From Micromonospora parathelypteridis (GTDB taxonomy: Bacteria; Actinomycetota; Actinomycetes; Mycobacteriales; Micromonosporaceae), in the NCBI RefSeq assembly GCF_014201145.1, contig NZ_JACHDP010000001.1:1488001-1552000 (forward strand): 64,000 bases of DNA, given 5' to 3'. The position numbers and the translations under genes are program-made. Positions 596 through 50,784 of this stretch are shown piece by piece. How positions within the stretch are numbered: the first letter of the stretch is position 1; every line of letters starts with the position of its first letter. Below the pieces are notes generated by a model. That model ran no database searches, was not told where the DNA came from, and was given only the letters and a program-made list of their open reading frames with translations.

Positions 596-656
596 GTTGA
601 TCATGAAGTTATTGCCACCGCCGTCGGCGTGTCGTGGCAATAACTTCATGATCAAC
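596..656. repeat. Perfect 23-bp intergenic palindrome (GATCATGA family)
   Basis: Arms 596-618 and 634-656 are exact inverted repeats of 23 bp around a 15-nt loop. The A+T-rich arm (core GATCATGAAGTTATTGCCAC) stands out in the GC-rich surroundings. It lies between the converging DUF2314 gene and gcvT, just after a C-rich tract on the plus strand (about 533-592). The core GATCATGA-GTT recurs at 32938-32995. It may act as a bidirectional terminator or mRNA 3' end. Confidence 0.9.
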
Positions 657-674
657 AGGGTTCTGGGGCGGGGG

Positions 675-1805
675 TTACTTCACTGAGGGGGTTACGAAGG
701 GGGGTTTGGTTAGCTTCAGGGGGGCTCGGCGGCCTCGGATGTCGATCTCGACCTCGTCGCCTTCGGACAGGTTGGCGTCGGTGTTCAGCAGGGCCAGCGC
801 GATGCCCTGCTTGCGGGTCGGGGAAAAGGTGCCGCTGGTTACCGTGCCGACCTGGGTGTCGCCCACGTGCAGGGTCATCCCGGGCCGCGGAATGGCCCGG
901 TCGACGGCTACCAGGCCGCGCAGCGTACGCCGGGGGCCGGCGGCCTTCTCGGCGAGCAGCGCGTCACGCCCCCAGAAGGCCGGCTTGTCCCAACCGACCG
1001 CCCAGCCGGAGCGGGCCTGCACCGGGGTGATGTCCAGGGAAAGGTCCTGCCCGTGCAGCGGGTAGCCCATCTCGGTACGCAGCGTGTCCCGGGCGGCCAG
1101 GCCGCAGGCCCGCAGTTCGAACGCCTTCCCGGTGGCGAAGAGCGCGTCCCAGACGGCCACCGCGTGCTCCGCCGGCACCACCAACTCGTAGCCCAACTCG
1201 CCCGTGTAGCCGGTACGGCAGACGGTCAGCTCCACCCCGGCCAGGCTCGCCGCGGAGAAGCTCATGTAGCCGTGCTCGGTGGGCAGGTCGAGAGCGGCCA
1301 GCAACTCGGCCGCGCGGGGGCCCTGCACGGCCAGCACGGCGTACGCCTCGTGCTCGTCGGTGACGGTGACCTGCGCGGGCGCCGCGGCGCGCAACCGGCG
1401 CACCACCTCACCGGTGTTCGCCGCGTTCGGGATGAGGAAGACGTGGTCGTCGGCGTACAGGTAGGCGATGATGTCGTCGACCACGCCGCCGGTGGCGTCG
1501 TCACAGCAGAGCGTGTACTGCGCCCGCCCCGGACCGATCCGGCCCAGGTCGTTGCTGAGGCAGGCGTTGACGAAGTCGGCAGCCCCGGGGCCGCTCACCC
1601 GGGCCTTGCCCAGATGCGACACGTCGAAGACCCCGACCGCGGTACGCACCGCGGTGTGCTCCTTGAGCACCCCGCCGCCGGCGTACTCCAGCGGCATCTC
1701 CCAGCCCCCGAACGGGGCGAACTTGGCGCCGGCGGCGATGTGCCGCTCGTGCAGCGGGGAACGGCGCAGCCGGGTCGCGGCGGCGTCGTAGGTCACGTCG
1801 GTCAT
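675..1805 (-). CDS. gcvT: Aminomethyltransferase (glycine cleavage T protein)
   Basis: GcvT transfers the methylene group from the aminomethyl-lipoyl arm of GcvH to tetrahydrofolate and releases ammonia. The 376-aa length fits the family. Recognisable blocks are the N-terminal [25 protein letters not shown] segment, [13 protein letters not shown], and a C-terminal domain with [11 protein letters not shown]. An upstream ATG at 1844 exists, but the start at 1805 is preferred because the conserved protein begins there and a TAAGTT hexamer sits 7 nt ahead, suggesting a leaderless message. The gene is divergent from pepA. No other gcv gene is in the window. Its cofactor supply links it to lipA and lipB downstream. 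Confidence 0.93.
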
Positions 1806-1812
1806 GGGTGGC

Positions 1813-1818
1813 AACTTA
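1813..1818 (-). promoter_or_regulatory. -10 hexamer TAAGTT of leaderless gcvT
   Basis: Read on the minus strand, TAAGTT is separated from the gcvT ATG by 7 nt. There is no Shine-Dalgarno sequence in between, so transcription probably starts at or next to the start codon. Confidence 0.5.
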
Positions 1819-1967
1819 CCGGGGGCAACGTCGCTGGTTAGCATCGGCGGGAGCCCGCTGGCCCTGTCGGCGGGACAACCATCACGTCCGGCGGGTACGT
1901 TCCGCCGGAGACCTTCACCGCTGGTACGCGACGCCGCGACCGGCCCGGCCCGCCCGGAGTAGCTTCA

Positions 1968-3542
1968 GTGACATCACCCCGCACCACCAACCTGAGCCTG
2001 GTCGACACCGACCCGGCCGAGCTCGCCGTCGACGCGATCGTGATCGGCGTGCACAGCCAGCCCGGAGAGCAGGGCGCCACCAGCGGCCTCGCCGGCACCC
2101 TGCTGCTCGCCAGCGGCGCGGAGAGCATTGCCGCCGCCTTCGACGGCAAGCTGACCGAGACGCTGGCGCTGCTCGGCGCGACCGGTGGGCCGGGCGAGGT
2201 CATCAAGCTGGCCACGCTGGGCACCGTGACCGCCCCGCTGGTGGCCGCGGTCGGGCTCGGCCCGGAGCCGTCGGGTGCCGCACCGGCTCCGGAGACGCTG
2301 CGCCGGGCCGCGGGTTCGGCGATCCGGGCTCTGGCGGGCGCGCCCAAGGTCGCGCTGGCTCTGCCGCTGCCGGACGACGCGGACGCGTCGGCGGAGCTGC
2401 GCGCGGTCGCCGAGGGCGCGCTGCTCGGCGGGTACCGGTTCGCCGGCTACAAGACCCGTCCCCAGCCGACCCGGCGGGAGCCGGTCGGCGAGGTGCTCGT
2501 CGCGGTGCCGGACGCCGGCGACGCGGGCGCTCAGGCGGAGGTCGTCCGGGCGCAGGTGGTGGCGGACGCGGTCCGGCTCACCCGGGACTGGGTGAACACC
2601 GCACCGAACGAGCTGCGTCCGCCGTCGTTCGCCGACGCGGTCGCCGACGCCGCCCGTGACGCGGGCCTCGGCGTCGAGGTGCTGGACGAGGCGGCGCTGG
2701 CCGCCGGCGGGTACGGCGGCATCGTCGCGGTCGGGCAGGGCTCGGAGGCTCCGCCGCGGCTGGTGAAGCTCACCTACACGCCGCAGGGCGGCGGTAACGG
2801 CAAGCGGGTCGCGCTGGTCGGCAAGGGGATCACCTTCGACACCGGCGGCATCTCGATCAAGCCCGCGCAGGGCATGTGGGAGATGAAGTCCGACATGGGC
2901 GGCGCGGCCGCGGTGGGCGCGGCCATGCTGGCGATCGCCGCGTTGAAGCCGACGGTGGCGGTCAGCGCCTACCTGCCGATGGCGGAGAACATGCCGTCGG
3001 GCACCAGTTACCGGCCGGGTGACGTGATCACCATGTTCAACGGCAAGCGGGTCGAGGTGCTCAACACCGACGCCGAGGGCCGGATGGTCCTGGGCGACGC
3101 CATCGCCCGCGCCTGCGCGGACGGCACCGACTACCTGTTCGAGACCTCGACCCTGACCGGCGGCCAGGTGGTCGCGCTGGGTAAGCGGGTGGCCGGTGTG
3201 ATGGGCACTCCGGAGCTGTGCGAGCGGGTCCAGGTGGTCGGCGACGCGGTTGGCGAGCCCGCCTGGCCGATGCCGCTGCCTGAGGACGTGCGTAAGGGCA
3301 TGGAGTCCGACGTGGCGGACATCTCGCAGGTCAACGCCGGGATGGACCGGGCCGGTCACATGCTGCAGGGCGGGGTGTTCCTGCGCGAGTTCGTGACCGA
3401 CGACGTGGCCTGGGCGCACATCGACATCGCCGGGCCGAGCTACCACTCCGGCGAGCCGACCGGTTACTGGACCAAGGGCGGCACCGGCGTGCCGGTCCGC
3501 ACGCTGGTGCAGCTCGTCGAGGACGTCGCGGCCAACGGCTGA
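1968..3542 (+). CDS. pepA: Leucyl aminopeptidase (M17)
   Basis: This is a cytosolic di-metal exopeptidase that removes N-terminal residues from peptides. The M17 signature NTDAEGRMVLGDAI is at about residue 365 and the metal/substrate block VGKGITFDTGGISIKP at about residue 284; MKSDMGGAAAV and the C-terminal AHIDIAGP also match. The 524-aa length is typical. The chosen GTG at 1968 has CCGGAG about 9 nt upstream. The gene is followed by a strong hairpin at 3555-3582. PepA next to lpdA and sucB is a common actinobacterial order. Confidence 0.95.
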   Translation: MTSPRTTNLSLVDTDPAELAVDAIVIGVHSQPGEQGATSGLAGTLLLASGAESIAAAFDGKLTETLALLGATGGPGEVIKLATLGTVTAPLVAAVGLGPEPSGAAPAPETLRRAAGSAIRALAGAPKVALALPLPDDADASAELRAVAEGALLGGYRFAGYKTRPQPTRREPVGEVLVAVPDAGDAGAQAEVVRAQVVADAVRLTRDWVNTAPNELRPPSFADAVADAARDAGLGVEVLDEAALAAGGYGGIVAVGQGSEAPPRLVKLTYTPQGGGNGKRVALVGKGITFDTGGISIKPAQGMWEMKSDMGGAAAVGAAMLAIAALKPTVAVSAYLPMAENMPSGTSYRPGDVITMFNGKRVEVLNTDAEGRMVLGDAIARACADGTDYLFETSTLTGGQVVALGKRVAGVMGTPELCERVQVVGDAVGEPAWPMPLPEDVRKGMESDVADISQVNAGMDRAGHMLQGGVFLREFVTDDVAWAHIDIAGPSYHSGEPTGYWTKGGTGVPVRTLVQLVEDVAANG

Positions 3543-3554
3543 CGGAAGTGATGC

Positions 3555-3582
3555 GGAGGGGTCCCCGGGTGGGGGCCCCTCC
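3555..3582. terminator. GC hairpin between pepA and the 109-aa gene
   Basis: Arms 3555-3566 and 3571-3582 are 12 bp with one mismatch around a 4-nt loop. It sits between two convergent stop codons and lacks a T-run, as is usual for actinobacterial terminators. Confidence 0.7.
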
Positions 3583-3589
3583 GTGCGTC

Positions 3590-3919
3590 TCAGCCCCGCT
3601 CGGGCCGACGCTTGCGGCGCTCGTTGAAGTCGCGCATCCGCTGCGGGTAGCCCATCAGCCGGACGTCGTACACCGGGATGCCCATCCGGTACGCGAAGCG
3701 TCGGGCGCCGTCCGGGCCGTCGATGCGCCGGCGGGTCCACTCTCCGTCGTCGGCGATCAGGATGACCGTGGTCTCCGTCACCGTCGTCCGGGGCTCGATG
3801 TAAGCCTCGACACCGCGCCGGCTCCGAATGAAATTCTCGAGATGGTCCAGGTCGCCCCGATCGGCGGCACGGTCATGACTCGGCACAGCCGCCTGTTTGC
3901 GGCGCCGGAACAACCCCAC
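3590..3919 (-). CDS. Conserved actinobacterial protein, 109 aa, beside lpdA
   Basis: This is a small basic protein of unknown function. It begins GLFRRRKQ and contains DRGDLDHLENFIRSRRGVEAY, a central strand-rich segment (TTVILIADDGEWTRRRI) and a C-terminal VYDVRLMGYPQRMRDFNERRKR. The GTG start at 3919 is supported by a strong purine-rich ribosome site (GGGGGAGAGG) 4 nt upstream; a longer frame back to 4135 has no such support and would add low-quality sequence. Homologues often sit between pepA and lpdA in actinomycetes and are sometimes labelled oxidoreductase without visible catalytic motifs. It is divergent from lpdA. Confidence 0.75.
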   Translation of the reverse strand: MGLFRRRKQAAVPSHDRAADRGDLDHLENFIRSRRGVEAYIEPRTTVTETTVILIADDGEWTRRRIDGPDGARRFAYRMGIPVYDVRLMGYPQRMRDFNERRKRRPERG

Positions 3920-4097
3920 CGGACCTCTCCCCCACGTTGTGTCATCGACGACGGTGCCAAGGGTACGTGTCGATGACGTGTCGTTGGGCACCTCGGTACG
4001 CACCCTGTGCCCGGTGGTGACAAGATGACCGAGGTGGGGTGTGTCTGTGTTACACCTCTGTGACCCCCGATGCAGCGACGCGACCTGGGAGTTGGAC

Positions 4098-5489: not shown

Positions 5490-5554
5490 TCATCCAACCG
5501 CGGCGTCCGGCGACGGGCGAAGATCCCACCAGGGGAATGAAGGAGTCTCAGAAA

Positions 5555-12039: not shown

Positions 12040-12119
12040 CCCGCCGATCTTGCACTTGCTGTCCCGACAGAACGGACGTGGTTGGGCAGAACGGCGACCC
12101 TAAGTGCAAGATCGGCGGG
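12040..12119. repeat. 18-bp intergenic palindrome with 44-nt loop
   Basis: Arms 12040-12057 and 12102-12119 (core CCGATCTTGCACTT) are exact inverted repeats. The left arm directly follows a C-rich, G-poor tract starting at the stop codon of the aldo-keto reductase. Unlike the other long palindromes here, it lies between two genes on the same strand, about 50 bp before the epimerase start. Confidence 0.85.
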
Positions 12120-28245: not shown

Positions 28246-28932
28246 ATGGCAAAGCCCCAGGAGAAGGTCTCGTTCGGCCAGCGGCTGAAGCAGATCGGGA
28301 TGGTGTTCCAGTTCACCGCCAAGCAGGACCGGTGGTTCGCGCCGTTGGTCGCCGCCGCGGTGCTCATCCCGCTCGCCCTCACCGTGGTCGCGGTCATCCT
28401 CTGGAGCTGGATCTGGCTGCCGATCGGCATCCTGTTCGTCCTGCTCGCGGTGCTGATCGTGCTCAACCTCCGGTCCAACAAGGCGATGATGAACGCCGCC
28501 GAGGGGCAGCCCGGCGCGGCGGCGCAGATCATGGAGAACATGCGCGGCGACTGGCGGGTGACCCCGGCCGTCAGCTCGACCACCCAGATGGACATGATCC
28601 ACCTGGTGATCGGCCGCCCGGGCGTGATCCTGCTGGCCGAGGGCAACCCGCAGCGGGTGCGCAGCCTGCTCGGGCAGGAGAAGCGGCGGCTGTCGAAGGT
28701 GATCGGCTCCGCTCCCCTGCACGACTACGTGATCGGGCAGGACGAGGGCGAGCTGCCGATCCGTAAGCTGCGGACCACGCTGCTGCGCCTGCCCCGCGCG
28801 CTCTCCGGCAAGGACGTCAACTCGCTGGACAAGCGACTCAAGGCGCTCACCGCCCGGCCGCAGATGCCCAAGGGCGCGATCCCCAAGAACATGCGTCCGC
28901 CGGGTGCCTTCCGCCAGTCGCGGGGCCGCTGA
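28246..28932 (+). CDS. DUF4191 membrane protein
   Basis: This is a 228-aa actinobacterial protein. A basic N-terminus (AKPQEKVSFGQRLKQIGMVFQFT) leads to two adjacent transmembrane helices (about residues 38-80), followed by a soluble domain with RNGDW-like MRGDWRVTPAV, DMIHLVIGRPGVILLAEG and a basic tail containing PKNMRPPGAFRQSRGR. The family is conserved next to RDD and glnA genes in actinobacteria, as here, but its role is unknown. Leaderless transcription is predicted. It ends at a strong terminator and converges on the RDD gene. Confidence 0.85.
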   Translation: MAKPQEKVSFGQRLKQIGMVFQFTAKQDRWFAPLVAAAVLIPLALTVVAVILWSWIWLPIGILFVLLAVLIVLNLRSNKAMMNAAEGQPGAAAQIMENMRGDWRVTPAVSSTTQMDMIHLVIGRPGVILLAEGNPQRVRSLLGQEKRRLSKVIGSAPLHDYVIGQDEGELPIRKLRTTLLRLPRALSGKDVNSLDKRLKALTARPQMPKGAIPKNMRPPGAFRQSRGR

Positions 28933-28951
28933 CCCCTTAGCCGTACGCCGA

Positions 28952-28983
28952 AAAGAGCCGGACCCGCGCGGGTCCGGCTCTTT
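28952..28983. terminator. Classical terminator after DUF4191 gene
   Basis: Arms AAAGAGCCGGACCC (28952-28965) and its complement (28970-28983) form a perfect 14-bp stem with a GCGC loop, ending in TTT. Confidence 0.9.
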
Positions 28984-29042
28984 CGCGTCATCCCCACTGC
29001 GCCCGCCCCCGGTCGCTCTCGCCGCCCGGCGGCCTCGGAGGT

Positions 29043-29120
29043 CAAGATCGTGCTGGATCCAGGAAGTAGTGGCATCCGCAGCGCCCGAGGCCCCTACTTC
29101 CAGGATCGAGCACGATCTTG
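29043..29120. repeat. 30-bp imperfect palindrome, family A copy 1
   Basis: Arms 29043-29072 and 29091-29120 pair over 30 bp with three mismatches (core CAAGATCGTGCT-GATCC-GGAAGTAG). A second copy with the same consensus, including the loop-side GTGGCATCC, lies at 32845-32922. It sits between the DUF4191 terminator and the convergent RDD gene. Confidence 0.88.
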
Positions 29121-29160
29121 CGGATCCTGGCGGTCCAGGTCAGCCCCGAGGTTCGTCGGG

Positions 29161-29559
29161 TCAGCCTCGGGGGGCGTCGACGATCACCGAGTCGGCGAGC
29201 CGGTCGTGCAGGCCGCGGCGGTGCTCGTCCATGATCAGCGCGGGGACGACGAGCGCCAGCAGCAGGCCCCGGATCAGCCCCCGGAGCACGCCGATGCGAC
29301 CACCGTCGTGCCAGTTCACGCAGCGGACCTTCGTGATGTACATGCCCGGCGTCTGGGCGAACAGGCCGAGGAAGATGCCGTAGACCAGCACCAGCACCAG
29401 CACCGGCGCCCAGCCGTCGCGTACCGGGTCGGCGAAGAAGTTGGACACCAGCAGGCAGAGCACCCAGTCGATGATCAGCGCACCGAACCGCTTTCCGAGG
29501 CTCGGCGGGGTGAAGGTCGGGTCGGTGGCCGGCGCTGCCGGGGCGTGCGGATTGGTCAC
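29161..29559 (-). CDS. RDD family membrane protein
   Basis: This is a 132-aa integral membrane protein. A Pro/Ala-rich N-terminus precedes SLGKRFGALIIDWVLCLL (the family R and D of RDD), then two further helices and MYITKVRCVNWHDGGRIG. The C-terminal DEHRRGLHDRLADSVIV carries the second conserved Asp motif. RDD function is unknown; some are linked to ion exchange. GTG 29559 is preferred because TACCCT lies 8 nt upstream; the frame remains open for 1.6 kb further upstream (antisense to glnA) but without supporting signals. It is divergent from glnA. Confidence 0.85.
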   Translation of the reverse strand: MTNPHAPAAPATDPTFTPPSLGKRFGALIIDWVLCLLVSNFFADPVRDGWAPVLVLVLVYGIFLGLFAQTPGMYITKVRCVNWHDGGRIGVLRGLIRGLLLALVVPALIMDEHRRGLHDRLADSVIVDAPRG

Positions 29560-29567
29560 AGCGGTCA

Positions 29568-29573
29568 AGGGTA
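29568..29573 (-). promoter_or_regulatory. -10 hexamer TACCCT of leaderless RDD gene
   Basis: On the minus strand, TACCCT is 8 nt before the GTG at 29559. Confidence 0.45.
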
Positions 29574-29727
29574 TCCGCGCCGGGATGAGGGCTCGCCGGG
29601 GTGCCGCCGCCACGGTGTGCCGATTCAGGCCAAAGGCATCAGATGTCATTACACTGGCACAGTCGGTACCGCCTTCGCGGCGGGCCGAAGGCGTGGACAG
29701 GAGCGTCGCTGACGCTCCGCGAGGGAC

Positions 29728-29765
29728 GTAACACGGCAGAAACAACGGAGACATGGCCGGGCAAC
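29728..29765 (+). promoter_or_regulatory. GlnR-type box upstream of glnA
   Basis: GTAAC (29728-29732), 6 nt, GAAAC (29739-29743) is an exact match to the actinobacterial GlnR half-box pattern gTnAc-n6-GaAAc. Twenty-two bp downstream a weaker pair GACAT-n6-GCAAC (29750-29765) keeps the helical phase of a double site. It lies about 60-95 bp upstream of the glnA start. Confidence 0.7.
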
Positions 29766-29823
29766 CCCACGGCCATAGCGTCGCCAGAAGCCTAGCCACC
29801 CCGTGGACGTGCCAGGAGGATGT

Positions 29824-31248
<1,425 letters not shown>

Positions 31249-31265
31249 GCAGTCGCTTCACTACC

Positions 31266-31310
31266 GGCTCGGGCCGGCTCCGCGATCGCGGAGCCGGCCC
31301 GAGCCGTTTT
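31266..31310 (+). terminator. Terminator of glnA
   Basis: Arms 31266-31284 and 31287-31305 form a perfect 19-bp stem, followed by GTTTT, the most classical intrinsic terminator in the window. Confidence 0.93.
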
Positions 31311-31320
31311 GTAACGCCCC

Positions 31321-31347
31321 CCGATATACCTTCGTATCCGATATATT
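31321..31347 (+). promoter_or_regulatory. Promoter and probable PadR operator
   Basis: CCGATATA occurs twice (31321-31328 and 31338-31345) around the dyad ATAC-CTTC-GTAT (31326-31337). The -10 TATATT (31342-31347) is 6 nt before the GTG at 31354, so repressor binding would cover the promoter and the message would be leaderless. Confidence 0.6.
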
Positions 31348-31353
31348 GCGGCG

Positions 31354-31719
31354 GTGGACACACCACTGCGCGAACCCACCTTCCTGATCCTCACCGCGCT
31401 CGCCGTCGGGCCGATGCACGGCTACGGGCTGATCGGCGAGGTCGCCACCCTCTCCGACAATCGCGTGTCGCTGCGTCCCGGGACGCTCTACGGGGCGCTC
31501 GACCGACTGGTCGACGCCGGCCTCGTCGAGGTCGACGGCGAGGAGGTGGTGGACGGCCGGCTGCGCCGCTACTACCGCCTCTCCCCCGGCGGCGAGGCCA
31601 CCCTGAGCGCCGAGACCGAGCGGCTGCGGCGCAACGTCGAAGCCGCCACCACCCGGCTGTCCACGCGGACTCGCGCCGCCCGCCCGATCACCCCGCGCAC
31701 GGCGGGAGGGCTGGCATGA
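31354..31719 (+). CDS. PadR family transcriptional regulator
   Basis: This is a 121-aa winged-helix regulator. It has the PadR core FLILTALAVGPMHGYGLIGEV, the recognition segment VSLRPGTLYGALDRLVDAGLVEV and the wing GRLRRYYRLSPGGEATL. The stop overlaps the start of the following membrane-protein gene (ATGA), so the two are translationally coupled. PadR genes in this arrangement usually repress their own operon. GTG 31354 follows a TATATT hexamer embedded in inverted and direct repeats. Confidence 0.9.
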   Translation: MDTPLREPTFLILTALAVGPMHGYGLIGEVATLSDNRVSLRPGTLYGALDRLVDAGLVEVDGEEVVDGRLRRYYRLSPGGEATLSAETERLRRNVEAATTRLSTRTRAARPITPRTAGGLA

Positions 31720-32699
31720 ACGACCTGGAACGCCGGTACCTCCGGCTGCTGCGTGCGTACCCCGCCGACTACCGGCGCGCCCGAGGCGCTGAGATCGTCG
31801 GGACGTACCTCGATCTCGCCGGCCCGGGCCGACGCTGGCCCTCGCCGGCGGACGCCGCGGACCTGCTGCGCGGCGGCCTCCGCCAGCGGCTGCGGGCCGC
31901 GGGCGTCACCGACCTGATCCCCGGGGTACGCCTCGCGGCGCTGCTGGCGATGGTCACCGCGAGCGCTCTCGCCGGTGTCTGGGGCGTGGCGGAGCTGCAT
32001 CCGCCGCCCGTGGAGTGGGGCGTCCCCCATCTCGGCCCGTTCGTCTCGCTCGGTGTCGTCGCGTGGGCGGCGTGGCTGCTGACGGCGGTGGTGATCGCCG
32101 TCGCGCCGATCCGGATCGCCCGGCTGACCATCGTCCTGGCGCTCCTGCTCACGCTGGCGCTGCCGCCGGTGGCAGCGGCGCTCGACGCACCCCGACCACC
32201 GCTGCTGATGCTGCTGCCGCAGGCGGCGCTGGGCCTGTTGGGGCTCGCCCTGCCCGACCGGCCCTCCAGGGCGATCCGCCTCGCGCCGCTGCTGTCCGCA
32301 CTGTTGGCGGCGGCGACGACGGAATTCCTGGTAGGCCTGGAAACGGTTGGCACCTACTACGGCACCACTCCGACGATCTTCCTGCCTACCGTCGGCGGGC
32401 TGCTGCTGGTCGTCGCGGCCCTGCTAGCCATGGGTCTGGCACTGGGCGGGGACGCCCGCGGCGGCTGGGCGCTCGTCACACTGCTCACCCCTGCCGGTTT
32501 CCTGGCGGTGCCCGCCCTTGCCGGCGGCATCGGCGGGATACAGGGCGCCGTCACCTTCACGCAGCTGGCCGGGAGCGCCGTCGCCGTCGCGCTCGCCGGT
32601 CCCGCCGTGCTGCTCCTGACCATCCTCGCTCGCACCCGCCGAAACCCCGCCACCCAGCACACCGGCAAAGCCTGCCCCACCTGCGGCGCACAACCCTGA
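31716..32699 (+). CDS. PadR-coupled membrane protein with HAAS-like N-terminus
   Basis: This is a 327-aa protein. The first 65 residues (NDLERRYLRLLRAYPADYRRARGAEIVGTYLDL...) form a soluble helical region like the HAAS domain that commonly accompanies PadR. About eight hydrophobic helices follow, ending in a short tail with CPTCGAQP. Its start codon overlaps the PadR stop by 4 nt (ATGA). Members of such pairs are membrane or transport-stress proteins of unknown function. A similar PadR/membrane pair occurs at 56.4-57.7 kb. It faces the MptB-like gene across a repeat-rich 290-bp gap. Confidence 0.75.
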   Translation: MNDLERRYLRLLRAYPADYRRARGAEIVGTYLDLAGPGRRWPSPADAADLLRGGLRQRLRAAGVTDLIPGVRLAALLAMVTASALAGVWGVAELHPPPVEWGVPHLGPFVSLGVVAWAAWLLTAVVIAVAPIRIARLTIVLALLLTLALPPVAAALDAPRPPLLMLLPQAALGLLGLALPDRPSRAIRLAPLLSALLAAATTEFLVGLETVGTYYGTTPTIFLPTVGGLLLVVAALLAMGLALGGDARGGWALVTLLTPAGFLAVPALAGGIGGIQGAVTFTQLAGSAVAVALAGPAVLLLTILARTRRNPATQHTGKACPTCGAQP

Positions 32700-32720
32700 C
32701 CACACCCCGACGGCACGCCC

Positions 32721-32740
32721 GCCAACCTCATGATCAACGG
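32721..32740. repeat. Solo arm of GATCATGA-family palindrome
   Basis: The 20-nt GCCAACCTCATGATCAACGG matches the right arm of the palindrome at 32938-32995 (CAACCTCATGATC shared), but no partner lies close by. It can pair with the left arm of that element about 200 nt away, or it is a decayed copy. Confidence 0.6.
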
Positions 32741-32776
32741 AGTCTCCCCCGGCCCCGAGCCGCGCGGCCCCGCGCG

Positions 32777-32841
32777 GCCCCGCCCCGCCCCGCCCCGCCC
32801 CGCCACGCCACGCCACGCCACGCCCCGCCCCGCCCCGCCCG
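32777..32841. repeat. Pentanucleotide microsatellite GCCMC x13
   Basis: Thirteen consecutive 5-bp units run from 32777: five GCCCC, four GCCAC, three GCCCC and a terminal GCCCG. It directly precedes the family-A palindrome at 32845. The plus-strand transcript would be C-rich and G-poor. Confidence 0.9.
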
Positions 32842-32844
32842 CGC

Positions 32845-32922
32845 CAAGATCGTGCTCGATCCTGGATGTAGTGGCATCCTGCGCGCCTGACACCACTACA
32901 TCCATGTTCGAGCACGATCTTG
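32845..32922. repeat. 30-bp imperfect palindrome, family A copy 2
   Basis: Arms 32845-32874 and 32893-32922 pair over 30 bp with two or three mismatches (core CAAGATCGTGCTCGA...GGATGTAGTGG). It shares consensus and the loop-side GTGGCATCC with the copy at 29043-29120, 3.8 kb away, and lies between convergent genes. Confidence 0.88.
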
Positions 32923-32937
32923 ACCGCACCAGCTTGA

Positions 32938-32995
32938 CGATCATGAGGTTGCCCGGAGATTCCGTCCGTTTCGTCGCCCGTCAACCTCATGATCG
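32938..32995. repeat. GATCATGA-family palindrome overlapping a stop codon
   Basis: Arms 32938-32951 (CGATCATGAGGTTG) and 32982-32995 are exact complements around a 30-nt loop. The right arm contains the TGA stop (32989-32987) of the minus-strand MptB-like gene, so the last three residues of that protein are encoded by the repeat. Confidence 0.85.
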
Positions 32996-34552
32996 ACGGG
33001 TTGGACCCGCAGTCGCGCGGCGGCGGAGCACGAATGCGAGCGCGAGCAGGAACAGGAGCAGGGCGGTCATCGCCACGGCGCCGGGGGCCTTCGTGAAACG
33101 GGCCAGGTTGGTGCCGTCGGGCAGGGTCAGGAAGGCCGCCGCCGCTGCTGGCAGCACGAACCACGTCGTCCTCGTGGCGGTCAGCGCGAGCAGCGCCAGG
33201 GGCCAGGTCGCGTACCAGGGGTGGAAGACCGGGGACAGGACGACGGTGGCGACCAGCGCCAACGCCGCACCGTGCAGCGCCACCAAGGGCTGCGCCACCT
33301 CGACCCGCGCCACCAAGGGCTGCGCCACCTCGACCCGCGCCACCCGAGGCCGGTCGTCGTTCAACCCGCGCAGTGTCTGCCAGGCCCGCCACCAGAGCAC
33401 CACCAGCACCCCGGCCAGCAGCAGCAACGCGACCCCCCGGACCACCGGCACCGCCTGCGGGTCCCGGCCGACCAGCGCGCCCGCGTAGTCCACGACCAGG
33501 CCGACGGCGGTGGGCGGCGACGTCCACTGCTCCGAGTCACCGCTGTGGGTCAGCCCGCCCACCCAGCCGAACCCGAGGCCGGACAGCGCCGAGGTGACCA
33601 GCAACGCGGCGAGCAGCCCGCCAGCGAGCCAGCCGCCGTCGCGCAGCAGCGCCCGTACGGTGTGGCGGCCGTGCACGGCGGCCAGCGCGGCGAACGGCAC
33701 CACCACCACGGCGCTCGCCTTCACCGTCACCGCCAGCCCGAGCAGCACCCCGGCGAGCAGCAACGCCGACGGCCGACCCGGTCGGCGGACCACGATCAGC
33801 AGCCCGCACAGCAGCAGGCCCAGCATCACCGCGTCGTTGTGTGCCCCGGCCACCAGGTGTACCCCGACCAGCGGGCCGGCCAGCGCCAGCCAGGCCGCCC
33901 GGCGGGTCGGCACCCCGGCCGCCCGCGCCAATCCGGGCAGGCAGAACGCGGCCAGCAGCAGCCCCGCCACGGCGATCACGCGCAGCAGCACGACCGCGCC
34001 GGTGAGCCCGCCGCCGAGACTGACCGCGAGGGCCGCGAGCAGCACGAACACCGGCCCGTACGGCGCAGGGGTGTCCCGCCAGATCGGTGCCACCGTGTCC
34101 AGCCACGGGCAGCCCGCCGCCGCCACCGGAACGGCGTACGGGTCGACGCCGTGCGCGTACGTCCAGCCCTGGCAGGCGTACGAGTAGACGTCGCGACTGC
34201 CCAGCGGCGGCGCGACCAGAAGCGGCAACGTCCACAGTCCGGCGGTGGCGTACGCCCACCGGGTCGACGGGGCACCCGCGCGCAACGACCACCAGGCCCC
34301 GACCAGCAGCGCCGTTCCGGCCAGCCAGCAGGTCAGCGTCGCCGGGCCGTCCGGGGCTTGCCAGATCGACTCCGGTGTCGCGCCCAGCGGGGCGTCGGGC
34401 AGTGCCCCGCCGAGGTACCCGGCCACGGCGAGCAGGATCGCCCCGGCCAGCCCCGCATACCTGGCGAAGCAAGCCGACCGCCAACCAGCCGAAGACGGAC
34501 CAGCCGGCGGACCAGCCGTAGGCGGACCAGGAGGCGCGCCGGGAGCGGTCAC
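32987..34552 (-). CDS. MptB-like polyprenol-phosphomannose mannosyltransferase, copy B
   Basis: This is a 521-aa GT-C membrane enzyme of the alpha-1,6-mannosyltransferase (MptB) type, which extends cell-envelope mannans or lipoglycans using a polyprenyl-phosphate donor. About 12 helices are visible. The family hallmark loop PPLGSRDVYSYACQGW is followed by CPWLDTVAPIWRDTPAPYGP, then AHNDAVMLGLLL and SPVFHPWYATW. GTG 34552 lies 14 bp after the stop of the paralogous copy A. A 30-bp in-frame tandem duplication makes VARVEVAQPL occur twice in a cytoplasmic loop, and the stop codon lies inside a palindromic repeat. It is the last gene of the glnE operon. Confidence 0.87.
   Translation of the reverse strand: MTAPGAPPGPPTAGPPAGPSSAGWRSACFARYAGLAGAILLAVAGYLGGALPDAPLGATPESIWQAPDGPATLTCWLAGTALLVGAWWSLRAGAPSTRWAYATAGLWTLPLLVAPPLGSRDVYSYACQGWTYAHGVDPYAVPVAAAGCPWLDTVAPIWRDTPAPYGPVFVLLAALAVSLGGGLTGAVVLLRVIAVAGLLLAAFCLPGLARAAGVPTRRAAWLALAGPLVGVHLVAGAHNDAVMLGLLLCGLLIVVRRPGRPSALLLAGVLLGLAVTVKASAVVVVPFAALAAVHGRHTVRALLRDGGWLAGGLLAALLVTSALSGLGFGWVGGLTHSGDSEQWTSPPTAVGLVVDYAGALVGRDPQAVPVVRGVALLLLAGVLVVLWWRAWQTLRGLNDDRPRVARVEVAQPLVARVEVAQPLVALHGAALALVATVVLSPVFHPWYATWPLALLALTATRTTWFVLPAAAAAFLTLPDGTNLARFTKAPGAVAMTALLLFLLALAFVLRRRATAGPTRRS
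33277..33336. repeat. In-frame 30-bp tandem duplication inside mptB-like gene
   Basis: The units 33277-33306 and 33307-33336 are identical, encoding VARVEVAQPL twice in succession. The exact identity suggests a recent slippage event, or an assembly artefact. The paralogue at 34567-35976 has no such duplication. Confidence 0.95.
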
Positions 34553-42576: not shown

Positions 42577-42636
42577 GGTGATCAAGAGGTTTGCGTCATT
42601 TCTGGGCGGGATCCTGACGCAAACCTCTTGATCACC
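42577..42636. repeat. Perfect 22-bp intergenic palindrome
   Basis: Arms 42577-42598 and 42615-42636 (GGTGATCAAGAGGTTTGCGT core) are exact complements around a 16-nt loop. It lies between convergent genes and ends 16 bp before the stop of the Vgb-like gene. The TGATCA-GAGGTT core resembles the GATCATGA family. Confidence 0.92.
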
Positions 42637-44267: not shown

Positions 44268-44343
44268 TGATCCACTCAATGTCGGCGATGTGGCGGCATC
44301 CGGGCACTCGGATACCGCCACATCGCTGATCTGGAGTCGATCA
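44268..44343. repeat. 34-bp imperfect palindrome, family B copy 1
   Basis: Arms 44268-44301 and 44310-44343 pair over 34 bp with a few mismatches (core GCGATGTGGCGG-ATCC). A near-identical element is at 50709-50784. It lies between the convergent secreted-protein and VOC genes. Confidence 0.9.
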
Positions 44344-45624: not shown

Positions 45625-45631
45625 GCCCGGC

Positions 45632-45637: not shown

Positions 45638-45716
45638 CGGCCGGGGTACGACGCCCTTCAGCGACCACCCAGAGGCGAGGCAGGCGACCGCCCACCGGCG
45701 AGGCAGGCGACCGCGC

Positions 45717-46142
45717 TCAGGCGATGCAGGCGCAGACGATCAGCGCGGCGCCGAAGTGCGTGGCGGCACTGACCCGGGCCGCCGGATGCGGCTCGGGCGA
45801 GCAGATGACCTCGCCGAGCTTGCCCGGAGTGAGCAGGTCGAGCACCACGAAGGCCAACGCCATGATGGCCAGACCGACCAGCCCGAACACCACCGTGGAG
45901 GCGATCCCCTTGCCGAAGTCGCTGTAGCTGGTCAGGATCGCGGTGAACACGATCCCGGCGATGCCGAGCTGGTTGGCGGCGAGCAGCAGCCCGGCGTTGG
46001 TGTTGCGCTCGACCCAGATCAGGTCCCGCAGCCGACCCGGGGTCAGCAGGTCGACCAGCACGAACCCGGCCGCCATGAGCCCCACGCCCACGATCCCGAA
46101 CACGACGCTCTGCCAGGCACCGCTGAGCAGATCCTCCAGCAC
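45717..46142 (-). CDS. DUF350 membrane protein downstream of glnA2
   Basis: This is a 141-aa protein with four transmembrane helices arranged as two similar halves: SVVFGIVGVGLMAAGFVLVDLLTPGRL and STVVFGLVGLAIMALAFVVLDLLTPGKL. The repeated VDLLTPG/LDLLTPG motif is the DUF350 hallmark. Function is unknown. GTG 46142 has GGGAGG 7 nt upstream. It lies 89 bp after glnA2 on the same strand. The open frame continues far upstream through glnA2 and nadE antisense sequence, which is not coding. Confidence 0.87.
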   Translation of the reverse strand: MLEDLLSGAWQSVVFGIVGVGLMAAGFVLVDLLTPGRLRDLIWVERNTNAGLLLAANQLGIAGIVFTAILTSYSDFGKGIASTVVFGLVGLAIMALAFVVLDLLTPGKLGEVICSPEPHPAARVSAATHFGAALIVCACIA

Positions 46143-46231
46143 CGACTGCCTCCCGATTCTCCGCCCGGAGGGGGTACCGGCGCGGTGATCGAGACGATAG
46201 CGGCAGCGCGCAAGCCCGTCAGCCCCTGCGG

Positions 46232-47581
46232 TTACAGCGCCAGGTAGCGCTGCCGCTCGTACGGGGTGACCTCGCGGCGGTACTGCTCCCACTCGGCCCG
46301 CTTGTTGCGCAGGAAGAAGTCGAAGACGTGCTCGCCGAGCACCTCGGCGACCAGTTCGGAGCCGGCCATCACGTCGATCGCCTCGGCGAGGTTCTCCGGC
46401 AGCGCTTCGTAGCCCATGGCGCGCCGCTCCGCGCTGGTCAGCGACCAGACGTCGTCCTCGGCGCCCGGCGGCAGCTCGTACCCCTCCTCGATGCCCTTCA
46501 TGCCGGCGCCGAGCAGCACCGCGAAGGCCAGGTACGGGTTGGCCGCCGAGTCCAGCGAGCGGACCTCGACCCGGGCCGAGTTGGGCTTGCCGTACGCGGG
46601 GACCCGGACCAGCGCGGACCGGTTGAGGTGACCCCAGCAGACGTACGCGGGGCTCTCGGTGATCCGGTCCGGCAGTGCCTGCGGGAAGAGCCGCTTGTAC
46701 GAGTTGACCCACTGGTTGGTGACCGCCGTGTACTCCCGGGCGTGCACCAGCAGGCCGGCGATGAACGACTTCGCCACCTTGGACAGCTTCATCGGGTCGC
46801 CACCGTCGTGGAAGGCGTTGCGCTCCCCCTCGAACAGCGACAGGTGGGTGTGCATCCCACTGCCCGGCTGGTCGGTGAATGGCTTCGGCATGAAGCTGGC
46901 CTGCACACCGGTGGAGAGCGCCACCTCCTTGACCACGTGCCGGAAGGTCATGATGTTGTCGGCGGTGGTCAGCGCGTCGGCGTAGCGCAGGTCGATCTCC
47001 TGCTGGCCGGGCGCGACCTCGTGGTGGCTGAACTCCACCGAGATGCCGATCCGCTCCAGCGCCAGCACGCCCTGGCGGCGGAAGTCCCGAGCCACGGCGT
47101 GCGTGGTGTGCTCGAAGTAGCCTCCGGTGTCGACCGGGGTGGGCACCGAGCCGTCCTGGGGGCCGTTCTCCAGCAGGAAGAACTCGATCTCGGGGTGGGT
47201 GTAGAAGGTGAAGCCCTTCTCGGCGGCCTTGGACAGCGCGCGGCGCAGCACGTGTCGGGGGTCGGCCCAGGAGGGCCCACCGTCGGGCAGCAGGATGTCG
47301 CAGAACATCCGGGCGCTTTCGCCGCTGACCCCGCCCTCGAAGGGGAACACCTGGAAGGTGGTCGGGTCGGGCATGGCCACCATGTCCGATTCGAAGACCC
47401 GGGCGAAGCCCTCGATCGCCGAACCGTCGAAGCCGATGCCCTCTTCGAAGGCCGCCTCCAACTCGGCGGGCGCCACCGAGACGCTCTTGAGCGTGCCCAG
47501 CACGTCGGTGAACCACAGCCGGACGAACCGGATGTCCCGCTCTTCCAGCGTCCGGAGGACGAACTCCTGCTGACGGTCCAC
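46232..47581 (-). CDS. glnA2: Type I glutamine synthetase homologue GlnA2
   Basis: This is a 449-aa GS-fold ligase. GFDGSAIEGF, HPEIEFFLLENGP, FSHHEVAPGQQEIDLRYADAL, FMPKPFTDQPGSGMHTHLS and NRSALVRVPAY are present. Where GlnA1 has the adenylylation Tyr, this protein reads DDVWSLT, so control by GlnE is unlikely. The Streptomyces GlnA2 has been described as a gamma-glutamylpolyamine synthetase, so glutamine synthesis should not be assumed. GTG 47581 follows a G-rich ribosome site, and a GlnR-like pair of GTAAC boxes lies about 80 bp upstream. It shares its direction with the DUF350 gene. Confidence 0.9.
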   Translation of the reverse strand: MDRQQEFVLRTLEERDIRFVRLWFTDVLGTLKSVSVAPAELEAAFEEGIGFDGSAIEGFARVFESDMVAMPDPTTFQVFPFEGGVSGESARMFCDILLPDGGPSWADPRHVLRRALSKAAEKGFTFYTHPEIEFFLLENGPQDGSVPTPVDTGGYFEHTTHAVARDFRRQGVLALERIGISVEFSHHEVAPGQQEIDLRYADALTTADNIMTFRHVVKEVALSTGVQASFMPKPFTDQPGSGMHTHLSLFEGERNAFHDGGDPMKLSKVAKSFIAGLLVHAREYTAVTNQWVNSYKRLFPQALPDRITESPAYVCWGHLNRSALVRVPAYGKPNSARVEVRSLDSAANPYLAFAVLLGAGMKGIEEGYELPPGAEDDVWSLTSAERRAMGYEALPENLAEAIDVMAGSELVAEVLGEHVFDFFLRNKRAEWEQYRREVTPYERQRYLAL

Positions 47582-47661
47582 TTCCCCAACCCCTCGCGAC
47601 ACTCTTTTGTCCGCCTTGGTCGGGCTGCACCCGACCTGATCGCCCAGTGTTCCCGGGCCTG

Positions 47662-47677
47662 GTTACGCAGACGTTAC
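47662..47677 (-). promoter_or_regulatory. Candidate GlnR box upstream of glnA2
   Basis: On the minus strand, GTAAC-n6-GTAAC (47677-47662) has the spacing of a GlnR half-box, with the second element one base off GaAAc. It lies about 80 bp upstream of the glnA2 GTG. Weaker than the glnA site. Confidence 0.5.
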
Positions 47678-47819
47678 GCGAACTGTCGCCGGTCGTCCCC
47701 TCGCGTCTCGCCCGGCGAGCGCGTGCCCCTGCCCCCGGCGAGCGCGCACCGCCGCGGCGTGGCGGCCATCTCGTCCGAGGGTACGGATTCTCCCCGGGAG
47801 GCTGGGGCAAGATGAGGAC

Positions 47820-49577
47820 ATGCCCACCCTGCGTCTCGCCCTGTCCCAGGTCAACCCGAGCGTCGGCGACCTCGCCGGAAACGCCGACCTGGTCCGCAGC
47901 TGGACCCGCCAGGCCGCCGATGCCGGTGCCCAGTTGGTGCTCTTCCCGGAGATGATGGTGACCGGATACCCGGTCGAGGACCTGGTCTTCCGGCGTTCCT
48001 TCGTCGCCGCGTCCCGGGCCGCCGTCGAGCGGCTCGCCGCCGACCTCGCCGCCGACGGCCTCGGCGAGCTGCCGGTGGTGGTCGGTTATCTGGACGCCGA
48101 CGGGCCGCCGCAGGTCAGCGGGGACGCCGAGCCCGGCCGGGGCGCCCGCAACGCCGCCGCGCTGCTGCACCGCGGCGTCGTGGCCGCCCGCTACTTCAAG
48201 CACCACCTGCCCAACTACGGGGTCTTCGACGAGGACCGCTACTTCGTTCCCGGCGACACCCTGACCGTGGTGCGGATCGGCGGCGTGGACGTCGCGCTGA
48301 CCATCTGCGAGGACCTGTGGCAGGCCGGCGGCCCGTTCGCCGCCGCCGGGCAGGCCGGCGTCGGCCTGGTGGTCAACATCAACGGCTCGCCGTACGAGCT
48401 GAACAAGGACGACATCCGGCTGCCGCTGGTCCGCCGCCGGGCCGTCGAGACGGGCGCCACCATCGCGTACGTCAACATGACCGGCGGTCAGGACGAGCTC
48501 GTCTTCGAGGGCGACTCGATGATCGTGGGCGCCGACGGTGAGCTGCTCACCCGGGCCCCGCAGTTCGTCGAGCACCTGCTCGTGCACGACGTCGAGCTGC
48601 CGGCCGCCACCGAACCGCCCGCCACGGAGATCGTCGCGGACGGCATGCGGGTCGTACGCAGCGCGCTGGACGGCATCCCGCCCACGCCGTCCGGCCCGGC
48701 CGCGACCGGCGGGATGATCGAGCCGGTGGCCGACGAGGCCGAGGTGTGGCAGGCGCTGGTGCTCGGCCTGCGCGACTACGTCAACAAGAACCGTTTCCCG
48801 TCGGTGGTGCTCGGTCTCTCCGGCGGCATCGACTCGGCGGTGGTGGCCGCGCTGGCCGTCGACGCGCTGGGACCGGAGCGGGTGGTCGGGGTGTCGCTGC
48901 CCAGCCAGCACTCCTCCGAGCACTCCCGGGAGGACGCGGCCGACCTGGCCAAGCGCACCGGCCTGGACTACCGCGTCGAGCCCATCCAGCCGATGGTGGA
49001 CGGTTTCCTGGCCAACCTGTCGCTGTCCGGGGTGGCCGTGGAGAACCTGCAGGCCCGGGTTCGCGGCGTGATCCTGATGGCGCTGTCGAACCAGGAGGGG
49101 CACCTGGTGCTGACCACCGGCAACAAGAGTGAGCTGGCGGTCGGTTACTCCACCCTCTACGGCGACTCGGTGGGCGGCTTCAACCCGGTCAAGGACGTCT
49201 GGAAGACGCTGATCTGGCGGCTCGCGAAGTGGCGCAACACGGACGCGGATCGGCGCGGTGAGGCCGCCCCGATCCCGGAGAACTCGATCGGCAAGCCGCC
49301 GAGCGCCGAGCTGAGCCCGGGCCAACTGGACAGCGACAACCTGCCCGACTACGACGTACTGGACCCGATCCTGATCGGGTACGTCGACGGCGACCTCGGC
49401 CGCGACGGGCTGGTCGAGTCGGGTCACGACCCGGCGGTGGTGGACAAGGTGCTGCGGCTGGTGGATACCGCCGAGTACAAGCGACGGCAGTCGGCGCCGG
49501 GCACGAAGATCTCCATGAAGGCGTTCGGCCGGGACCGCCGTCTGCCGATCACCAACCGGTGGCGCGAGCACGGCTGA
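47820..49577 (+). CDS. nadE: Glutamine-dependent NAD+ synthetase
   Basis: NadE converts deamido-NAD to NAD+, using ammonia released from glutamine by its own N-terminal nitrilase domain. The glutaminase triad is E44 ([11 protein letters not shown]), K127 ([15 protein letters not shown]) and C163 (LTICEDLW). The synthetase P-loop [14 protein letters not shown] starts near residue 330, and [19 protein letters not shown] and the C-terminal [23 protein letters not shown] follow. At 585 aa it is the long, glutamine-dependent type. GAGG lies 4 nt before ATG 47820. It is divergent from glnA2, so a second glutamine-linked enzyme shares this intergenic region. Confidence 0.96.
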
Positions 49578-49777
49578 GCCGTACCCGTGGGCGTCGGGTC
49601 GGTTGGACGGCCCGGCGCCGTCCCCCGGCCCGGCGCTGTCGCGGCGCGGTGCTTTCGCGGCGGCCTCGCCGTGGAGTGACATCTCGCACTGGGCTCTGCC
49701 GTCACCCCGTCCCGCGGTGCGACGATCGCGACAGAACCCGGGGACCGCGCAGGCGGCCTCGAGGAAGGGAGACAGAG

Positions 49778-50623
49778 ATGGTGGAGTCCACTCCGAACGA
49801 GGTGACCGCGCTGTACGGCGGACCGGCCACCCGTCGGGTCCGCACCCGCGACCTGATCGCCGCCAAGGAGCGCGGCGAACGGTGGCCGATGCTCACCTCG
49901 TACGACCAGTACACGGCGTCGATCTTCGACCAGGCCGGCGTCCCGGTGCTGCTGGTCGGCGACTCGGCCGCGAACAACGTCTTCGGCTACGAGACGACCC
50001 TGCCGGTGACCGCCGACGAACTGCTTCCGCTGGTACGGGCCGTGGTACGCGCGACCCGGCAGGCACTGATCGTCGGTGACCTGCCGTTCGGCTCGTACGA
50101 GGAGGGTCCGGCCCAGGCGCTGCGCACCGCCGTCCGGTTCATGAAGGAGGGTGGCTGCCACGCGGTGAAACTGGAGGGTGGTCGCCGCTGCGCCGCGCAG
50201 ATCGCCGCGATCGTCGGTGCCGGCATTCCGGTGATGGCGCACATCGGATTCACCCCGCAGAGCGAGCACACCCTGGGCGGCTACCGCGTGCAGGGCCGGG
50301 GCGACACGGCCGACGAGGTGCTCGCCGACGCACGGGCGGTGACGGAGGCGGGCGCGTTCGCGGTGGTGCTGGAAATGGTGCCCGGCGAGGTGGCCAAGCG
50401 GATCACGCACGAACTGCCGATCCCCACGGTCGGCATCGGCGCCGGCCCGGACACCGATGCGCAGGTGCTGGTCTGGCAGGACATGGCCGGACTGCGCACC
50501 GGCAAGGCGCCACGCTTCGTCAAGCGGTACGCGGACCTGGCCGGCACCCTCACCGACGCCACCCGCCGTTTCGCCGACGAGGTCCGAGGCGGCGAGTTCC
50601 CGACCGCCGAGCACACCTTCTAG
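49778..50623 (+). CDS. panB: 3-methyl-2-oxobutanoate hydroxymethyltransferase
   Basis: PanB makes ketopantoate from ketoisovalerate and methylenetetrahydrofolate, the first step of pantothenate and CoA synthesis. It has [58 protein letters not shown] (metal/substrate region) and [10 protein letters not shown], then [30 protein letters not shown] upstream of ATG 49778 fixes the start (281 aa). It follows nadE after 200 bp and converges on the F420-reductase gene with a family-B palindrome between. Confidence 0.96.
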
Positions 50624-50708
50624 AGCTGCAGCGGCGGGGCCGCCGGCCACGCGGTTCGCCGGCCGGCCCCGCCGCCACAGCGACTGGACCGTCCGGCCCG
50701 GCGGGCGT

Positions 50709-50784
50709 TGATCCACTCCGCTTCGCCGATGTGGCGGCATCCGCCCTTGGGGATACCGCCACATCGGCGATCTGGAGTCGACCG
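50709..50784. repeat. 34-bp imperfect palindrome, family B copy 2
   Basis: Arms 50709-50742 and 50751-50784 pair over 34 bp (core GCCGATGTGGCGG-ATCC). It is nearly the same sequence as 44268-44343, including TGATCCACTC at the left end and TCTGGAGTCGA at the right end. Confidence 0.9.

What the first reader, a model, noticed from the sequence alone, without database searches (positions are those of the whole stretch)
596..50784. Seven long intergenic palindromes in recurring sequence families, mostly at convergent gene ends
Seen directly: 596-656 (23-bp perfect arms), 12040-12119 (18 bp), 29043-29120 and 32845-32922 (family A, about 30 bp each, same consensus), 32938-32995 (14 bp), 42577-42636 (22 bp perfect), 44268-44343 and 50709-50784 (family B, 34 bp each, near-identical). 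Six occupy the gap between convergent genes; only 12040 is between same-strand genes. Where one is present there is usually no classical short GC terminator (28952-28983 is the exception). Families A and B share a loop-side GGCATCC, and 596 and 32938 share GATCATGA-GTT. Inference: a mobile or gene-conversion-spread element family that acts as a bidirectional transcription end, transcript-collision barrier or mRNA-stabilising 3' structure.
Basis: partly seen in the sequence, partly recalled or inferred. Interest (0 to 1): 0.8.

Follow-up and report, generated by a model that had tools for sequence, protein, structure and literature searches.

The report
GATC-capped palindromes between converging genes
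A Micromonospora soil bacterium scatters many look-alike DNA palindromes, most with GATC near their ends, into the gaps after genes, above all where two genes run towards each other; they may form hairpins that end messages in both directions, though neither that role nor what spreads them has been shown.

Summary
All eight listed palindromes (the title says seven) are present: seven in six convergent gaps, one between same-strand genes. They belong to dispersed families: at least 61 copies of A, at least 75 of B, and 83 matches of a GATC-capped superfamily pattern (kin of 596, 32938, 42577 and 12040). In 1.66 Mb of this genome, 65 gap copies split convergent 37, tandem 24, divergent 4 (1.04, 0.19, 0.06 per kb of gap); tandem copies sit mostly behind the upstream stop.

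New here: 43 of 49 long palindromes carry GATC near their outer ends whatever their inner arms, and GATCWWG..CWWGATC elements fall almost only at spans 47-49, 54-56 and 67-70 nt. At one orthologous gap (15 distinct sequences) the arms covary strongly. Families A and B covary only weakly. The strict superfamily pattern is in 58 of 150 family genomes (19 of 44 genera) and 2 of 396 phylum genomes, both Micromonospora.

No Y1 (RAYT) gene, target duplication, U-tract or accepted Rfam match was found. Best reading: REP-like dispersed elements kept as bidirectional 3'-end hairpins (0.45); main rival: a passively tolerated selfish element (0.33). No RNA data. Convergent enrichment is shown without bias only in this genome. 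New variant of a known kind.

The parts
596..656 (.). C-type GATC-capped palindrome (GATCATGAAGTTATTGCC arms), convergent gap 541/675
   Evidence: RNA fold -41.4 kcal/mol on both strands
12040..12119 (.). E-type GATC-capped palindrome (GATCTTGCACTT arms), between same-strand genes, 35 nt after the upstream stop
28952..28983 (+). classical G+C-rich hairpin behind the DUF4191 gene, kept in many relatives with or without the palindrome
29043..29120 (.). family A palindrome, convergent gap DUF4191 / RDD gene
32845..32922 (.). family A palindrome, convergent gap 32699/32987; loop inverted relative to M. arborensis
32938..32995 (.). short GATC-capped palindrome (GATCATGAGGTTG arms), overlapping the end of gene 32987-34426 (-)
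42577..42636 (.). D-type GATC-capped palindrome (GATCAAGAGGTTTGCGTCA arms), convergent gap S66 peptidase / Vgb lyase; orthologous site S3
44268..44343 (.). family B palindrome, convergent gap 44214/44400 (glyoxalase gene)
50625..50681 (+). G+C-rich hairpin directly behind panB
50709..50784 (.). family B palindrome, convergent gap panB / F420-type oxidoreductase gene

Best explanation
These are dispersed, non-coding, REP-like palindromic elements. SHOWN: many copies; near-fixed spans; GATC near the outer ends in most long palindromes; a strong place at gene 3' ends in this genome; arm complementarity kept through compensatory change in the GATC superfamily; arms nearly unchanged in three elements shared with M. 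arborensis; patchy spread among genomes. INFERRED: each copy folds, in the RNA made from either strand, into a hairpin of about 14-35 bp that fixes the 3' end of both converging transcripts. With no U-tract it would act either as a U-less (I-shaped) terminator or as the block at which 3'-5' exonucleases stop after Rho-dependent termination. Copies spread by an unidentified mobilising activity and persist mainly where such a 3'-end hairpin is useful or harmless.
For: Position: 37/24/4 convergent/tandem/divergent of 65 copies, odds ratio 9.9, P 3e-16 (approximate: it compares copies with gaps of >=60 bp, and some gaps hold two copies); 19 of 24 tandem copies nearer the upstream stop, median 52.5 against 164 nt. 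Structure: at site S3, 15 distinct sequences (this genome and 14 relatives) have 96.1% of cells paired against 83.9% shuffled, 33 cells changed on both sides against 11.6, covariation 0.341 against 0.127, 0 of 500 shuffles as high. Over 107 distinct superfamily elements picked by their ends alone, inner positions 8-18 match 8.97 of 11, against 5.96 with arms swapped between elements. Substitution: convergent gaps with an element hold another short hairpin in 14 of 40, against 21.2 expected for length-matched gaps, P 0.01. Constraint against M. arborensis: arms 58/60, 42/44, 65/68 identical in three elements. Hairpins without U-tract are a recognised class of 3' ends in Streptomyces clavuligerus Term-seq (PMC8269248; passages seen).
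Against: No RNA data. In tandem gaps short hairpins are equally common with and without an element (3/17 against 110/618). At S1 a classical terminator coexists with the element and stays where the element is absent; at S3 nine of 11 relatives scored empty have gaps of 0-25 nt and so no replacement hairpin. In families A and B pairing hardly exceeds what independent arms give, so part of the constraint is on sequence, not pairing. The S3 set shares ancestry, and my script required GATC at both ends and at least 13 of 18 paired positions, so its GATC invariance is by construction and its covariation is inflated. Outside this genome the convergent preference is not independently shown: most of the relatives' loci were fetched around the very gaps of the window, and in 100 kb of same-genus genome G092 none of 4 long palindromes is convergent.
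Confidence: 0.45

Rival explanations
1. Selfish short interspersed elements (REP or MITE type) with no host role. They insert widely, and selection removes them from coding and promoter DNA, so that survivors sit between gene ends. Arm complementarity is kept for the element's own mobilisation.
For: Patchy copy numbers between related genomes: family E in 35 of 121 genomes, 34 of them with either >=27 or <=4 hits (40 scored per genome, strict filters); superfamily pattern in 58 of 150 genomes, 1 to 171 copies. Turnover between species: of 8 own elements with both anchors in M. arborensis, 4 kept the same family, 1 is degenerate and 3 are absent. Different families occupy the same orthologous gap. 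Depleted in divergent gaps.
Against: Fewer other hairpins in occupied convergent gaps; 5-fold excess per kb in convergent over tandem gaps, though tandem gaps also hold promoters; no Y1 (RAYT-type) transposase; no target duplication of 3 bp or more.
Confidence: 0.33
2. DNA-level dyads: paired binding sites for a family-specific protein (nucleoid, domain-boundary or supercoiling factor) placed between converging genes.
For: Spans are quantised in the superfamily and nearly constant in A and B model matches although their loops differ. In A and B each arm is conserved as a degenerate motif with little covariation. GATC recurs at the ends: 43 of 49 long palindromes here; at S3, 13 of the 14 palindromes found de novo in relatives have it at both ends, the 14th (L132) at one (read).
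Against: Inner arms change completely between subfamilies while complementarity is kept, which points to the hairpin rather than one read sequence. No candidate protein was sought.
Confidence: 0.12
3. Ordinary intrinsic terminators that merely look alike.
For: Hairpins at gene ends with strong folds.
Against: No T-run after the hairpin on either strand of the window copies; about 8% T in the 20-nt downstream flank of 37 convergent copies. Shared caps and fixed spans in dozens of copies are not expected of independently arisen terminators.
Confidence: 0.06

Closest known systems
REP (repetitive extragenic palindromic) sequences and BIMEs
   Same: Short, palindromic, extragenic, many copies; REPs are said to lie often between convergent genes (PMC1525189, passages seen).
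   Different: 54-80 nt mostly, against 21-65 given there; GATC near the ends; quantised spans; no Y1/RAYT gene in this genome.
HS-U-lack transcript ends / I-shaped terminators of high-GC bacteria
   Same: Strong hairpin without U-tract at gene ends (PMC8269248, passages seen).
   Different: These are sequence families with shared ends, not independently arisen hairpins; no RNA ends mapped here.
Bidirectional transcript ends (Bi-TEPs)
   Same: Ends on both strands over one stretch (PMC8269248 counts 55 in S. clavuligerus, passages seen).
   Different: The passages seen do not describe a dispersed repeat family.
MITE-like repeats such as RUP (recalled; only a search listing and abstract start seen)
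   Same: Inverted ends, small fixed size, no coding.
   Different: No target duplication seen here.

Membership tests
REP sequences (broad sense) | many palindromic copies in extragenic space | tested here: met
REP sequences (broad sense) | length 21-65 nt (PMC1525189, passage) | tested here: inconclusive
   the 47-49 and 54-56 nt classes fit; the 67-70 nt class, A (nearly all 78-80) and B (nearly all 75-77) exceed it
REP/RAYT system | RAYT gene (Y1 transposase, PF01797) in the genome | tested here: not met
   0 matches in own genome; control rings in 5 of 14 reference genomes
Intrinsic terminator | hairpin followed by U-tract | tested here: not met
   no T-run after the window copies; flank composition of 65 copies
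I-shaped / U-less terminator | RNA 3' end directly behind the hairpin | not testable with these tools
   no RNA data
MITE (DDE transposon derived) | target site duplication | tested here: not met
   110 flank pairs, lengths 2-9 at offsets 0-5: only a 2-bp excess (0.127 against 0.044) passed the print threshold of twice expectation plus 0.03; A and B not tested
Rfam families | score above gathering threshold | tested here: not met
   0 in the window; with a lax threshold on 28900-33050 only, the element at 32845 matches a miRNA hairpin model, 30.9 bits against a gathering score of 100

The most novel reading that the evidence does not exclude
GATC-capped palindromes are a new class of size-quantised mobile hairpin of the Micromonosporaceae. 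The GATC cap, a fixed span and a structured loop would be what an unknown, non-RAYT enzyme recognises, while the freely changing but complementary inner stem is what the host keeps as a bidirectional 3'-end signal.
Probability: 0.25. Interest if true: 0.8.

Novelty: new variant of a known kind. Interest (0 to 1): 0.6.

Why it matters
If the hairpins set 3' ends, Micromonospora and relatives (known antibiotic makers; recalled) end many converging transcripts with interchangeable repeat cassettes, which would change operon and terminator annotation in these genomes. The family also offers natural series for testing, in one system, how a dispersed repeat becomes a regulatory part: same site with and without it, same ends with different stems, same span with different loops. 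The mobilising enzyme, if there is one, is unknown.

Tried and rejected
RAYT-driven REPs: no Y1 transposase. Known RNA: none accepted. Target duplication: none of 3 bp or more in the superfamily. A gene carried between paired A copies: the genes between three close pairs differ in orientation and size, and A copies are only mildly clustered (3 gaps under 2 kb against 1.05 expected; 8 under 10 kb against 5.1); a Pfam look at one of them failed and was not repeated. Rho rut-like C-rich 3' UTR: C over C+G upstream of elements is 0.62 against 0.515 in control convergent gaps but is mirrored downstream in tandem gaps, so it belongs to the element or its site, not to the transcript; no weight is put on it. 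Per-end comparison of short hairpins (10/62 against 121/312) counts a shared hairpin twice in empty gaps, so the gap-level matched test was used (14/40 against 21.2, P 0.01; 11/40 against 16.6, P 0.035, at the stricter threshold); Fisher tests over residual lengths 60-400 nt gave P 0.11 and 0.10. GATC avoidance in the genome: none, observed/expected 1.01. I saw listings and abstract starts only; none of the listed titles or abstract starts describes these elements, and many hits were not listed. Six 12-mers of the arms hit 22 papers, 15 listed, none of them on these bacteria by title. Nothing wider is claimed about absence in print. Of papers, only passages of PMC8269248 and PMC1525189 were read. 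On checking this report I corrected: GATC invariance at S3 is by construction; the superfamily's spread is patchy rather than all-or-none; convergent preference is shown without bias only in this genome.
Full report
WHAT WAS CHECKED. The window is G000:C1:1488001-1552000 of a 7,014,531-bp single-contig genome, 72% G+C. Its GlnE is 99% identical (best segment) to that of Micromonospora arborensis NRRL 8041, and most of the 80 best named loci are Micromonospora. At score >=20 there are 39 in convergent gaps (35.7 kb), 27 in tandem gaps (126.2 kb), 6 in divergent gaps (64.0 kb) and 2 in coding DNA (1.43 Mb); a Markov control gives 0.0 in each. That set includes ordinary terminators, so families were then treated separately.

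FAMILIES. BLAST with nine queries of seven families found 66 places in the 1.66 Mb (20 A, 20 B, 5 C, 4 D, 11 E, 4 F, 2 G). Over the whole genome there are 61 distinct non-overlapping A places (124 strand matches), at least 75 B places (150 strand matches, which is the number scored) and 83 places matching GATCWWGNASTT-N25..50-AASTNCWWGATC, with 0 for the reversed control pattern. Independently of any pattern, of 49 long de novo palindromes in own gaps 43 have GATC in the outer end of an arm (39 in both), against 10 of 79 short hairpins; in loci of relatives 52 of 72, where many are orthologues of each other.

PLACE. Of the 66 places, 65 lie in gaps (one F copy lies in a called gene): convergent 37, tandem 24, divergent 4, that is 1.04, 0.19 and 0.06 per kb of gap; convergent against the rest, odds ratio 9.9, P 3e-16, approximate because some gaps hold two copies. 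In tandem gaps 19 of 24 are nearer the upstream stop (median 52.5 nt) than the downstream start (164 nt). Orientation in tandem gaps is mixed (A 3+/5-, B 5+/4-, C 3+/0-, E 0+/2-, F 1+, G 1+). Superfamily elements with complementary arms, identical ones counted once, lie in own sequence convergent 20, tandem 11, divergent 1, coding 2, edge 2; in other sources convergent 33, tandem 12, divergent 1, coding 8, edge 4. The second set is biased, since most of those loci were fetched around the window's own gaps; seven of its coding cases fall at one syntenic spot and may be gene-calling errors. In unbiased 100-kb samples of four other genomes, long palindromes were 0 of 4 convergent in same-genus G092 (though it has 137 pattern copies), 2 of 3 in G011, 3 of 7 in G020 and 0 of 2 in G014, mostly not of this superfamily. 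Long palindromes number 6.9 per 100 kb in the Micromonospora loci, 0 in 115 kb of Salinispora and 1.75 in other genera, in glnE-region loci.

ANATOMY. Superfamily elements picked only by their ends (GATCWWG..CWWGATC, 54-75 nt) number 110 (107 distinct) in 4.61 Mb of held sequence, against 0 for two control patterns. Scanning spans 36-159, those with complementary inner arms fall at 43 (1), 47-49 (7), 54-56 (56), 67-70 (41), 127 and 138 (1 each), with nothing at 50-53 or 57-66 (orthologues and some repeats of one locus are included). A model matches span nearly all 78-80 nt and B nearly all 75-77 nt, although their loops are not alike; full-model matching favours this. Thirteen of 39 elements of 55 nt have a loop motif CGACACGCCG. 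Outward, the ends read C-rich, G, K, Y, GATC on both sides, and no direct repeat of 3 bp or more stood out. RNA folds of the window copies run from -26.2 to -59.4 kcal/mol. No T-run follows the window copies.

COVARIATION. It differs between families. In the superfamily it is strong: 8.97 of 11 inner positions match, against 5.96 with arms swapped between elements. At one orthologous gap (S3, S66 peptidase / Vgb lyase), 15 distinct sequences give 96.1% paired cells against 83.9% shuffled, nine of 19 pairs with double changes, covariation 0.341 against 0.127, no shuffle of 500 as high. Caveats: shared ancestry; the set required GATC at both ends and at least 13 of 18 paired positions, so the invariance of GATC there is by construction. 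Without that rule, 14 of 26 relatives show a palindrome at S3 in the de novo scan, 13 with GATC at both ends and one (L132) at one end (read). In A and B covariation is weak: 82.8 against 81.0% and 81.6 against 79.0% paired; score 0.117 against 0.088 (4/500) and 0.137 against 0.112 (8/500). There each arm looks like a degenerate motif of its own, with the same alternatives at the same places. A and B may obey a different rule from the superfamily.

TURNOVER. At S3, 15 of 26 relatives with both flanking genes hold a 54-55 nt element by the strict rule, in at least three stem versions; of 11 scored empty, nine have gaps of 0-25 nt, L120 has 91 nt without one, and L132 holds a copy with one end base changed. 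At S1 the DUF4191 terminator stays in many species that lack the palindrome, and A, B-like, E or C-like palindromes occupy the gap in different species. At S4 three relatives without an element (L102, L113, L152) have a G+C hairpin in the gap (read). Against M. arborensis (89.9-97.1% nucleotide identity in aligned blocks), of 8 own elements with both anchors 4 keep the same family, 1 is degenerate and 3 are absent (the script counted 5 present because another element shares that gap); in the other direction 4 of 6 keep the same family (script: 5). In three shared elements arms are 58/60, 42/44 and 65/68 identical and loops 10/18, 13/16 and 8/8; the first loop, that of 32845, matches 16 of 18 as reverse complement, so it is inverted.

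DISTRIBUTION. Family A: 8 of 121 Micromonosporaceae genomes, own included, with strict filters. Family E model: 35 of 121, 16 of 44 genera, 34 of the 35 with >=27 or <=4 hits, 40 scored per genome. Family B: 3 of 10 named genomes (M. arborensis, M. lupini, M. avicenniae; none at E 1e-7 in Salinispora oceanensis, two Actinoplanes, Phytohabitans maris, Asanoa iriomotensis, M. pattaloongensis or Micromonospora sp. PLK6-60). Superfamily pattern, no mismatch allowed: 58 of 150 family genomes (19 of 44 genera, 1 to 171 copies; 15 of 16 same-genus genomes), control 0 in every row; and 2 of 396 phylum genomes, both Micromonospora. Several genomes without E hits have the pattern (for example G020: 25, G126: 23), so part of the patchiness is change of subfamily. 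In a class-wide scan the E model matched 9 of 296 genomes, six outside the family with 1-3 weak hits each; of three of these fetched, two are GATCTTG-capped palindromes in convergent gaps with different stems and one is a different repeat. That is thin evidence beyond the family.

FUNCTION. For a 3'-end role: place, structure, constraint, and fewer other hairpins in occupied convergent gaps (14 of 40 against 21.2 matched, P 0.01; stricter threshold 11 against 16.6, P 0.035). Against: no such effect in tandem gaps, facultative presence, coexistence with classical terminators, abutting genes where absent. No U-tract means no canonical intrinsic terminator. U-less stem-loop ends are recognised in Streptomyces clavuligerus, where the authors relate them to I-shaped terminators or trimmed Rho-dependent ends (PMC8269248, passages). 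I therefore commit to a bidirectional 3'-end hairpin at 0.45, with a passively tolerated selfish element at 0.33; the two are compatible.

KNOWN KIND. REPs are the nearest kind and are reported to favour gaps between convergent genes (PMC1525189, passages). The RAYT test fails, so these are REP-like, not members of a REP/RAYT system. GATC ends, quantised spans and patchy spread in one actinobacterial family did not turn up in the nine answered searches (listings only).

Noticed in passing
window 32719-32740 (about): A lone arm, GCCAACCTCATGATCAACGG, without its partner nearby (read by eye): perhaps a relic of a GATC-capped element in the same gap as 32845 and 32938.
   Followed up: no
L044:14019-14090, L028:12863-12922, L039:3193-3232, L048:11764-11822: Family F: G+C-rich arms; three copies share the loop GCAGGGATCAAGCCTGACCGCCCGGA (or its near reverse complement); the L048 copy lies inside a called gene.
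   Followed up: partly
L151, L222:150, L222:6190, L223:13704: Another hairpin family, AGGAAGGGCCCCTT arms, three of the four copies seen with the same loop ACAGAAAGCG, in Plantactinospora and an unnamed genus (g10); no GATC cap.
   Followed up: no
L162 (Phytohabitans maris): Five long palindromes in gaps called convergent, with GATC near an end but other arms (GATCGAAGCTCCC, GATCGTGGTACTTGGG and the like), outside the superfamily pattern.
   Followed up: no
   Followed up: no
M. arborensis G001:C130:213078-213604; C125:78328-78504: Family B copies in small clusters about 100-235 bp apart.
   Followed up: no
S3 orthologues L107, L113, L119, L130: The stop codon of the Vgb lyase gene lies inside the GATC end (TGATCA) of the element.
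   Followed up: partly
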